DNA of 64,000 nt from Anaerolineales bacterium (GTDB taxonomy: Bacteria > Chloroflexota > Anaerolineae > Anaerolineales > Villigracilaceae). Made by a program: the position numbers and the translations under genes. This document shows, piece after piece, positions 57,325-59,806 of this stretch; within the stretch, counting starts at the first letter, position 1; each line of letters starts with the position of its first letter. Under the pieces are notes generated by a model. That model saw only the letters and a program-made list of their open reading frames with translations, ran no database searches and was not told where the DNA came from. The stretch is from the NCBI GenBank assembly GCA_013140605.1, contig JABFSL010000001.1:1-64000 (forward strand). Reading direction: 5' to 3'.

Positions 57325-58910
57325 CTGTTGTTAAAATTATTAGCATTGAAAGAATTTACATAATTCCTAAAAATACTAGAGCGTATATACGCAGACACAT
57401 CAACTATCTTATCTCGATCGTCTGGATCATCATAAACAATAACAATTTTACTGCCTACAGGATTTGTGTTATTAACATTTTCGCGTTGATTCCTTACAAA
57501 CTTTAAGATACTTTCATCTTGAGAGCAAGACAGCCTAACAGCCTCAATAAACTCTGTCAATTTCAATGTGTGGTTGCATTTTCTTAAAAAAAGAATAATC
57601 GGGATATGCTGTTTATTCATTGTATGCCAGATCGTATCCCGAAATTTAGTTTGGTTTTCCGAAGTTTGCTCTAAACAAGCAAATACCGCGTTTACATCTT
57701 TGAGCGAATTGATATTTGCTCCAACGTGGTGCAACATATCATCATCCTTTACTAAAATCAACGGTTTTTTTCCACCTTCTTTGTGAAAAGACAAAAAGTG
57801 ATTCCTCATTGTGTCTTCATCTTCCGAATGCCTTCGATAAAGAATTAAATTTAAACTCCTAACAATGGTATGAGTTACGCTTCCTAGTAGGTACGTTTCT
57901 TGGTACTCCCACTGATCTATTTCTAGCTCATAAATATCTTCATCTTCCAAAATGAAATCGATGCGAAATGGAAGAGTTTTATAATTGTCTGCTATATATT
58001 TATTTAAACTCTTCTTGACACCATCGACATCAAGAGGCAGGAAAAACCACCTAGGCTTTATTGAGTTGAACGAAGAAAATACTGCACGATATAACTTTCC
58101 TTTGTTTTCTTTCTTAAGGAGAACAAACATTATATTATTTCGGCTTGACGGGGGCAAAGTGCCATTAATTTTTGAGGGAATTTCAGCAACTTCTCCCATA
58201 TATCTGATCAAATTCTTCAGATCATTTGTAAAGTTACCGACATTATCCGCTTCGTACCCTGGCTCTTTTAGTATATCAACTATTATATTGATTTTTTCAA
58301 AATTAATCGCTGCTTCTACCAATTGATATAGCTGCTGATATACGCCAGACGCATCTATTTGAGCCCCTAATTCAGAGCGATTAATTAACTCTCTCAATCT
58401 TTTTGGATCTTGAATACTCTTACACGCCCAAATCTTTTGAAGAAGCTCAGAAAAAGGTTTTTTTTGAGCTTCTTCAAAAACGGTGTTATTAGAAGACAAA
58501 CTCCTTCCACTTAATATATAATTAATACTTTTTTTGATTTCAACAACTTCTCCCAACTCAGAAGGCCAATACCCTTTACTTATATGAGAACTCAATTCCT
58601 TTAAAAACTTCATGTAAGCAGTAGATACATTTCCATTTCCATTTGAGAGAATATTATTTTCATTCAGCTTAAGTAGTAATTCCCCGAATTTATTATTACG
58701 AAAAACACGACCTACAAAGTTAATAAGATGCGAATAATCTAAAACAATCGATTCTGAAGCAGTAAAAGAAATCTCTAAATCTCTAGCAAGTTCCCCTATA
58801 AAATCAGCACTAATTCTGCCCAAGAGGATTTTGTCATGAAGTTGGGTTGCAATTTCTGTAATCATTTCTTCTTTGGGATAAACTCTATCTTCCATATAAA
58901 CCAACTCCAC
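57309..58910 (-). CDS. EAD-like domain + VMAP-C-like protein
   Basis: Duplicated helical domain at 58188-58460; C-terminal RIDFILEDEDIYELEIDQWEYQETYLLGSVTHTIVRSLN...KIVIVYDDPDDRDK matches remembered VMAP-C layout. Confidence 0.68.
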   Translation of the reverse strand: MELVYMEDRVYPKEEMITEIATQLHDKILLGRISADFIGELARDLEISFTASESIVLDYSHLINFVGRVFRNNKFGELLLKLNENNILSNGNGNVSTAYMKFLKELSSHISKGYWPSELGEVVEIKKSINYILSGRSLSSNNTVFEEAQKKPFSELLQKIWACKSIQDPKRLRELINRSELGAQIDASGVYQQLYQLVEAAINFEKINIIVDILKEPGYEADNVGNFTNDLKNLIRYMGEVAEIPSKINGTLPPSSRNNIMFVLLKKENKGKLYRAVFSSFNSIKPRWFFLPLDVDGVKKSLNKYIADNYKTLPFRIDFILEDEDIYELEIDQWEYQETYLLGSVTHTIVRSLNLILYRRHSEDEDTMRNHFLSFHKEGGKKPLILVKDDDMLHHVGANINSLKDVNAVFACLEQTSENQTKFRDTIWHTMNKQHIPIILFLRKCNHTLKLTEFIEAVRLSCSQDESILKFVRNQRENVNNTNPVGSKIVIVYDDPDDRDKIVDVSAYIRSSIFRNYVNSFNANNFNNRWRLS

Positions 58911-58915
58911 ACAAG

Positions 58916-59806
58916 CTATATGTCCTTGATGTATGCGATTAAATTTTTTAAATTAGATGTTAAGTTCCCAACATTATCAGCTTCATAGCCAGGCTCTTTT
59001 AATATATCAACCAATGTATCAAGTCCTCCAAAACTACATGCCGCCTGCACCAGTTGATATAGCTGTTGATATGCGCCAAGCGTATCTATTTGCGCCCCTA
59101 GTTGAGAGCGGTTAATTAAATTTCCCAATCTTCTTGAATCTTGAACGCTTCTGCACGCCCAAAATTTTTGTACAAGTTCCCGAATATCCTCCGGACATGG
59201 CCTATTCCCTGAAATATCAAGTGAGCTATTCATATGCGGAGGTTCACCCTTTGAAGAAGCGCTCAAGGTAGTCAATATTGAAGCCAAAAGCTTATTGGTT
59301 ACTTCAGCAGCAGCCAAAAGATCTATTATCTTCGTAGTTTGCAGCTTTTCCCGGTATTCATTGTTTTTCGGAAAGAGCGCAACATTTTTCTGAAAAATTT
59401 CGACGTATGCCTTGGCAGCTTCCTGAACTTGAGTATGTTTACTCTTCAAAGGCGGGACTTGTTCCAAATTCTTTATCAGTGCTTGCCGTAAATTGTCAAA
59501 ATTAACATCAGTCTCAAATTGTTCTGTGGCCGCGATTACTGAGGGTAAATCATAAAGAGGCAAGTCATGAAGGGCATCGTAAATATCCACATCCTTCTGC
59601 CGCCAGATATCCTTAAAAGATTCCTCGGTTTGTGATAATGCCCATACCAATTGCTTTACTCTTTCATCCCGATCATAGGGTTCCCTGATAATCTCAACCC
59701 CATTCTCACCAATTACCTGAGACACATAATATTCAATAATAGAAACTGAAAGTTTCCCTAAATTCCCGGCTAGCGCCTGCAAGCGTTCTTGTAGAGTTGA
59801 TGACAT
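58916..59806 (-). CDS. Helical adaptor with C-terminal EAD-like domain
   Basis: C-terminal 96 aa (58919-59206) strongly similar to domain in neighbouring VMAP-like protein. Confidence 0.7.
   Translation of the reverse strand: MSSTLQERLQALAGNLGKLSVSIIEYYVSQVIGENGVEIIREPYDRDERVKQLVWALSQTEESFKDIWRQKDVDIYDALHDLPLYDLPSVIAATEQFETDVNFDNLRQALIKNLEQVPPLKSKHTQVQEAAKAYVEIFQKNVALFPKNNEYREKLQTTKIIDLLAAAEVTNKLLASILTTLSASSKGEPPHMNSSLDISGNRPCPEDIRELVQKFWACRSVQDSRRLGNLINRSQLGAQIDTLGAYQQLYQLVQAACSFGGLDTLVDILKEPGYEADNVGNLTSNLKNLIAYIKDI

What the first reader, a model, noticed from the sequence alone, without database searches (positions are those of the whole stretch)
58188..59206. Twin EAD-like domains in two adjacent proteins
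The C-terminal ~96 aa of 58916-59806 and residues ~151-241 of 57309-58910 are strikingly similar: both have LINRS(Q/E)LGAQID..G.YQQLYQLV.AA..F.....VDILKEPGYEADNVGN.T..LKNLI.Y. Same-locus duplication of a small helical domain on different proteins is the hallmark of effector-associated domains that recruit partners by homotypic interaction. The conserved core may be a new EAD subtype.
Basis: partly seen in the sequence, partly recalled or inferred. Interest (0 to 1): 0.76.

Follow-up and report, generated by a model that had tools for sequence, protein, structure and literature searches.

The report
Paired docking domains in defence operon
Two neighbouring bacterial proteins carry near-identical copies of a small docking domain inside a recognisable but highly diverged MoxR-vWA-VMAP immune-type operon, so this is a divergent example of an already described way of wiring such systems together rather than a new kind of system.

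Summary
Residues 155-241 of 57309-58910 and 210-296 of 58916-59806 align without gaps at 67% identity (E 1e-36; 76% at DNA level), the only two copies in the genome.

The setting explains them. The larger protein ends in a diverged VMAP-C domain and is followed, in the published order, by a MoxR ATPase carrying both VMAP-system signature motifs and by a SAV_2336-type vWA component. A VMAP and its adjacent gene sharing one small domain is the published definition of an effector-associated domain (EAD) pair (Kaur et al. 2020).

The "new EAD subtype" part is not supported. Weak but consistent evidence makes the domain a diverged EAD2: EAD2 is the only Pfam family it touches (E 0.09, below cut-off), and it beats all shuffles against a profile of EAD2s from the same phylum. 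A relative there has TIR-EAD2-VMAP-M0-VMAP-C.

The eleven-gene operon also has a kinase and four related GTPase domains, and is an AT-rich island (37% against 51% GC).

Homotypic binding is inferred, not tested; structure models were too poor to use.

The parts
58188..58448 (-). EAD copy 1: residues 155-241 of the VMAP protein
   Evidence: blastp E 1e-36 to copy 2
58919..59179 (-). EAD copy 2: residues 210-296 (C-terminus) of the adjacent protein
   Evidence: only Pfam family touched is EAD2, E 0.086, below cut-off
57309..58910 (-). VMAP component: unassigned N-terminal region (res 1-150), EAD (155-241), VMAP-C (about 291-507)
   Evidence: Pfam VMAP-C E 5e-5 (whole protein) and 1.3e-5 (C-terminal part), just under the cut-off; own 4-sequence VMAP-C HMM E 6e-9 for this single target
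57417..57980 (-). VMAP-C core match (residues 311-498)
58916..59806 (-). EAD partner protein: helical N-terminal domain (about res 15-190) plus C-terminal EAD
   Evidence: N-terminal domain matches NB-ARC/STAND proteins in related genomes, best E 4.8e-14
59186..59806 (-). N-terminal helical domain shared with NB-ARC/STAND proteins
   Evidence: no Pfam family over cut-off
56302..57324 (-). MoxR-type AAA+ ATPase with the VMAP-system N-terminal motifs WLIFKG and PPWRTF
   Evidence: Pfam AAA_5 E 6.6e-8; aligned with three VMAP-linked MoxRs; motif definition in PMC7159879
53945..56287 (-). vWA component: SAV_2336-type region (res 8-450) plus C-terminal GTPase-like domain (res about 533-761)
   Evidence: NCBIfam NF041121 E 9.6e-64, over cut-off; C-terminal part is a paralogue of 59842-60741, E 6.6e-13
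53021..53932 (-). P-loop GTPase-like protein
59842..60741 (-). P-loop GTPase-like protein
60784..61725 (-). P-loop GTPase-like protein
61745..62788 (-). membrane-anchored SH3_3-like protein
   Evidence: Pfam SH3_3 E 5.8e-4, below cut-off; one hydrophobic stretch
62840..63079 (-). small protein with paired CxxC motifs and one hydrophobic segment
63092..64000 (-). C-terminal part of a protein kinase whose gene runs past the window end to contig position 64606
   Evidence: Pfam Pkinase E 6.1e-39 on the full 504-aa protein, L007:93-1607
49745..52912 (-). last gene of the operon, 1055 aa, no family found, hydrophobic C-terminal segment

Best explanation
The two blocks are a matched pair of effector-associated domains, most likely diverged EAD2, in a MoxR-vWA-VMAP ternary operon that was probably acquired horizontally. 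Proposed mechanism: the MoxR ATPase and vWA protein form the energy-dependent switch and VMAP is the third core subunit (published model). The EAD in VMAP pairs with the same EAD at the C-terminus of the neighbouring protein, and this brings that protein's N-terminal helical domain onto the core. In related genomes that helical domain is fused to NB-ARC/STAND ATPases, so it is probably a signalling or adaptor module delivered here in trans. When the switch fires, the GTPase-like domain on the vWA tail and the free GTPase-like proteins act as output. Shown here: the duplicated domain, VMAP-C, MoxR motifs, vWA match, gene order, and kinship of the partner domain. Inferred: EAD-EAD binding, the switch, GTPase output, and a defence role.
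For: Duplicate domain, only two copies in the genome, purifying selection on both. VMAP-C at the C-terminus. Gene order VMAP then MoxR then vWA, as published, with a 16-base overlap and a 14-base gap. MoxR signature motifs. vWA component by NCBIfam, E 9.6e-64. EAD2: sole Pfam family at E<=10 for copy 2; copy 2 beats all 4558 scored shuffles against an HMM of 14 EAD2s from the same phylum; the profile of both copies beats all 600 column shuffles, local and global; copy 2 ranks first of 284 tiles and its protein first of 113 ORFs. A same-phylum VMAP has TIR-EAD2-VMAP-M0-VMAP-C. The partner's N-terminal domain recurs at the N-terminus of NB-ARC/STAND proteins, E 4.8e-14, and once beside EAD10.
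Against: No EAD or VMAP-C match in this locus reaches its Pfam cut-off. Copy 1 alone scores weakly against EAD2: 11 of 4665 shuffles and 2 of 284 tiles score as high or higher. The domain lies directly before VMAP-C, behind 150 unassigned residues, whereas published EADs sit at the N-terminus. No recognisable enzyme is fused to copy 2. No relative of the domain was found elsewhere, so recurrence could not be shown. Structure models are unusable.
Confidence: 0.72

Rival explanations
1. A genuinely separate EAD subtype, not derived from EAD2, with the same docking role in the VMAP operon.
For: Below the EAD2 cut-off (13.5 against 23.8 bits); no relatives in 397 genomes of the class; PGYEADNVGN segment without a counterpart in the EAD2 set.
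Against: EAD2 is the only family touched, and the profile tests beat all shuffles; true EAD2s occur in the phylum, while EAD1 was not found in 151 genomes of it.
Confidence: 0.22
2. A duplicated VMAP middle-type (VMAP-M) domain: a copy of the VMAP linker region was fused to the next gene, with no pairing function.
For: In the VMAP protein the block lies just before VMAP-C, where VMAP-M0 sits in L051 (EAD2 194-273, VMAP-M0 287-388, VMAP-C 420-668); VMAP-M regions are helical and variable.
Against: No match to any VMAP-M family at E<=10; the resemblance is to EAD2; both copies stay under purifying selection.
Confidence: 0.1
3. A tandem duplication between neighbouring genes (57309-58910 and 58916-59806 are 5 bases apart) maintained by chance or gene conversion, with no role in assembly.
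For: The genes are adjacent and the repeats start 731 bases apart.
Against: dN/dS about 0.2 at dS about 1; the boundaries coincide with domain edges; copy 2 is joined to an unrelated domain that elsewhere belongs to NB-ARC proteins; it fits a published architecture.
Confidence: 0.05

Closest known systems
VMAP-type MoxR-vWA ternary conflict system with EAD pair (Kaur et al. 2020, PMC7159879)
   Same: Gene order VMAP-MoxR-vWA, VMAP-C domain, MoxR N-terminal motifs, SAV_2336-type vWA with a variable C-terminal domain, one small domain shared by VMAP and the adjacent gene
   Different: VMAP-C and EAD both below Pfam cut-offs; no VMAP-M0 found; EAD directly before VMAP-C; EAD partner is a helical NB-ARC-associated domain, not a known enzyme; GTPase-like genes and a kinase in the same operon
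EAD2 (Pfam PF19956)
   Same: Length, helical prediction (low confidence), N-terminal L..AC..xQD motif, downstream GLxxLv segment
   Different: 13.5 bits against a cut-off of 23.8; the middle and C-terminal parts align poorly
TIR-EAD2-VMAP-M0-VMAP-C system in a genome of the same phylum (L051)
   Same: VMAP, MoxR and vWA in the same order; EAD2-class domain in the VMAP
   Different: TIR fused directly; VMAP-M0 present; its VMAP domains are over Pfam cut-off
DO-GTPase systems of GAP1-N2 type (Kaur et al. 2020)
   Same: Several GTPase-like proteins with weak DO-GTPase2 matches, protein kinase and zinc-ribbon/TM-like genes nearby
   Different: No GAP1 domain detected in the 1055-aa protein; resemblance only

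Membership tests
VMAP ternary system | VMAP-C domain | tested here: met
   Pfam E 5e-5 (whole) and 1.3e-5 (C-terminal part), 25.7 bits against cut-off 27; own HMM from four same-phylum VMAPs E 6e-9 for one target. Met as a diverged member
VMAP ternary system | MoxR ATPase with WxhapG and PsWRxa motifs | tested here: met
   WLIFKG and PPWRTF present and aligned with three other VMAP-linked MoxRs
VMAP ternary system | vWA component with variable C-terminal domain | tested here: met
   SAV_2336_NTERM E 9.6e-64, over cut-off; C-terminal GTPase-like domain. That SAV_2336 is the vWA part is inferred from its position and from relatives L015-L017
VMAP ternary system | Gene order 5' VMAP, MoxR, vWA 3' | tested here: met
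EAD class | One copy on the core component and a second on an adjacent gene's protein | tested here: met
EAD class | Second copy fused to an effector or signalling domain | tested here: inconclusive
   Fused to a helical domain that in relatives is N-terminal to NB-ARC/STAND ATPases; no enzyme recognised
EAD class | Adjacent-gene copies closer to each other than to others | tested here: met
   67% identity to each other; no other relative found
EAD class | Small non-enzymatic, mostly helical domain | tested here: inconclusive
   AlphaFold models all-helical but pLDDT 37 and 45
EAD class | Homotypic interaction | not testable with these tools
   Needs binding assay or complex prediction
EAD2 (PF19956) | Score over curated cut-off | tested here: not met
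   13.5 bits against 23.8
EAD2 (PF19956) | Profile similarity beyond chance | tested here: met
   Beats all 600 column shuffles by hhalign and all 4558 sequence shuffles for copy 2; copy 1 weaker
DO-GTPase/GAP1 system | GAP1 protein | tested here: not met
   No Pfam GAP1 match at E<=1, no similarity to GAP1-N2 proteins

The most novel reading that the evidence does not exclude
A previously undescribed EAD subtype through which a VMAP core borrows, in trans, the N-terminal module of NLR-like NB-ARC proteins, in an operon that also joins a set of GTPase-like proteins and a kinase to the MoxR-vWA switch.
Probability: 0.2. Interest if true: 0.6.

Novelty: new member of a known kind. Interest (0 to 1): 0.42.

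Why it matters
EAD homotypic pairing is a published prediction that I found no direct test of for EAD2. This pair, with two diverged copies on two soluble-looking proteins of one operon and both under purifying selection, is a compact test of it. The partner's N-terminal domain, shared with NB-ARC/STAND proteins, suggests that VMAP systems and bacterial NLR-like proteins exchange the same front-end modules.

Tried and rejected
The weak hit in a same-genus genome (L006, 39% over 62 residues, E 0.007) lies in an unrelated ORF; rejected as chance. The genome contigs and viral scans with the EAD pair found nothing, and tblastn of both proteins against plasmids found nothing. The genome-contig scan with the GTPase alignment gave two marginal loci, not informative. 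Idea that the 1055-aa protein is GAP1 and the locus a merged GAP1-N2/VMAP system: not supported by sequence; the kinase, GTPase-like and zinc-ribbon-like genes only resemble that theme. Structure search was not run because the models were too poor. PDB matches to the partner protein (dynein intermediate chain E 0.004, apolipoprotein A-I E 0.04) read as long-helix composition, not homology. FadR_C, DUF3877 and GvpK Pfam hits are below cut-off and not shared by most relatives (GvpK in two of five); rejected. The EAD1 control search found no EAD1 in 151 genomes, so it could not serve as a rival profile. The own-genome pattern search was only used to learn the contig.

Full report
OBSERVATION. The two proteins share one ungapped block of 87 residues, 67% identical (blastp 124 bits, E 1e-36; Smith-Waterman 312 against a maximum of 78 in 500 shuffles). 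It spans 58188-58448 (residues 155-241 of the 57309-58910 protein) and 58919-59179 (residues 210-296, the C-terminus, of the 58916-59806 protein). The DNA is 76% identical over 251 bases and is the only long direct repeat in 49000-64000. The genome holds no third copy. dN is about 0.20 at dS about 1.0 (NG86), so both copies have long been under purifying selection. This is not an artefact.

SURROUNDINGS. Eleven genes on the minus strand, contig positions 64606 to 49745, run head to tail. The gaps run from a 16-base overlap to 51 bases, except 108 before the last gene. In order: protein kinase (Pkinase E 6e-39), a small CxxC/TM protein, a membrane-anchored SH3-like protein, two GTPase-like proteins, the EAD partner (58916-59806), the VMAP (57309-58910), MoxR (56302-57324), the vWA protein (53945-56287), a third GTPase-like protein, and a 1055-aa protein of unknown family. 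GC is 36.8% for 49745-64000, against 50.9% for 1-49600 and 49.1% beyond the operon, so this looks like an acquired island. A search for the vWA protein found it in only 4 of 397 genomes of the class, this one included.

WHAT THE CORE IS. The 57309-58910 protein matches VMAP-C just under the Pfam cut-off (E 1.3e-5 for its C-terminal part, 25.7 bits against 27). An HMM from four VMAP-C domains of the same phylum finds it at E 6e-9 as single target. The vWA protein matches SAV_2336_NTERM at E 9.6e-64, over cut-off. The MoxR carries WLIFKG and PPWRTF, which fit the WxhapG and PsWRxa motifs described as unique to VMAP-system MoxRs (PMC7159879), and aligns with the MoxRs of three VMAP systems found here. 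The order VMAP, MoxR, vWA is the published strict order. Those relatives (L015 EAD8-VMAP, L016 and L017 caspase-VMAP, L051 TIR-EAD2-VMAP-M0-VMAP-C) confirm that such systems occur in this class or phylum.

WHAT THE SHARED DOMAIN IS. The authors of the EAD concept define EADs by this pattern: a copy on the VMAP and a second copy on the adjacent gene's protein, the two being each other's closest relatives (restated in PMC8195603). That is met. Which EAD? Scanned alone, copy 2 matches only EAD2 among 24,736 Pfam families (E 0.086, 13.5 bits, cut-off 23.8), and copy 1 matches nothing. I collected 14 EAD2 domains from genomes of the same phylum. Against their HMM copy 2 scores 11.1 bits, more than any of 4558 scored shuffles; copy 1 scores 5.8, matched or beaten by 11 of 4665. 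By hhalign the two-copy profile scores 22.35 local and 17.07 global; none of 600 column shuffles does as well. Copy 2 outranks all 284 tiles cut from other genes of the window, and copy 1 is beaten by two. The visible common ground is the N-terminal L..AC..(M/I/V)QD stretch and the downstream GLxxL segment. I read this as a diverged EAD2 (about 65-70%), not a proven one. AlphaFold made both constructs all-helical but at pLDDT 37 and 45, too low to use.

WHAT IS FUSED TO COPY 2. Residues about 15-190 of the partner protein match the N-terminal regions of larger proteins in related genomes: E 4.8e-14 and 5.7e-8 for two proteins of one genome, about 8e-5 for two others, confirmed by blastp at E 4e-10 to 2e-5. 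Three of those proteins continue into NB-ARC ATPase domains (E 4e-16, 8e-27, 1e-8), with TPR repeats in one and separate TPR genes next to another; a fourth has TPRs and a weak STAND-like match; one also holds EAD10 right after the shared domain. No Pfam family over cut-off covers this domain. So copy 2 is attached to a module that elsewhere fronts NLR-like ATPases. This fits the EAD principle, in which modules found fused to core or STAND proteins in one system are delivered in trans in another, but no enzymatic activity is apparent.

MECHANISM. Most likely the VMAP EAD and the partner EAD pair, docking the partner's N-terminal module onto the MoxR-vWA-VMAP switch. The GTPase-like domain fused to the vWA tail is a paralogue of the free GTPase-like proteins (E 6.6e-13; all four keep the P-loop and an xKxD motif), so output probably runs through them. 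Shown: the domain pair, core components, order, and kinships. Inferred: EAD binding, switching, GTPase output, defence role.

LIMITS. EAD and VMAP-C both stay under Pfam cut-offs; the domain was not found in any other genome searched, so recurrence beside other effectors could not be shown; the domain lies directly before VMAP-C rather than at the N-terminus, and residues 1-150 of the VMAP are unassigned. An apparent resemblance of the outer genes to GAP1-N2 GTPase systems was tested and not confirmed.

Noticed in passing
window 59186-59806; L061:8394-10022; L062:9458-12184; L063:7438-10419; L064:7805-11941: A helical N-terminal domain of about 190 aa, without a Pfam family, shared by the EAD partner and NB-ARC/STAND/TPR proteins; possibly a new NLR-type N-terminal module.
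   Followed up: partly
window 53021-53932, 54005-54691, 59842-60741, 60784-61725: Four paralogous GTPase-like domains (27-34% identical to one of them) in one operon, one fused to the vWA component; three with sub-threshold DO-GTPase2 matches.
   Followed up: partly
window 49745-52912: A 1055-aa protein with a C-terminal hydrophobic segment, no family and no relative in 250 genomes of the class.
   Followed up: partly
window 49745-64000 and on to contig position 64606: AT-rich island (36.8% GC) in a 50.9% GC neighbourhood, boundaries coinciding with the operon and ending 114 bases from the SecA-like gene at 45608-49630.
   Followed up: partly
L050:1-16000 and L052:1-17000: Same-phylum loci with EAD2 on CHAT, iSTAND and SAVED proteins near an AAA/FGE-sulfatase protein: another EAD2-coupled conflict system.
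   Followed up: no
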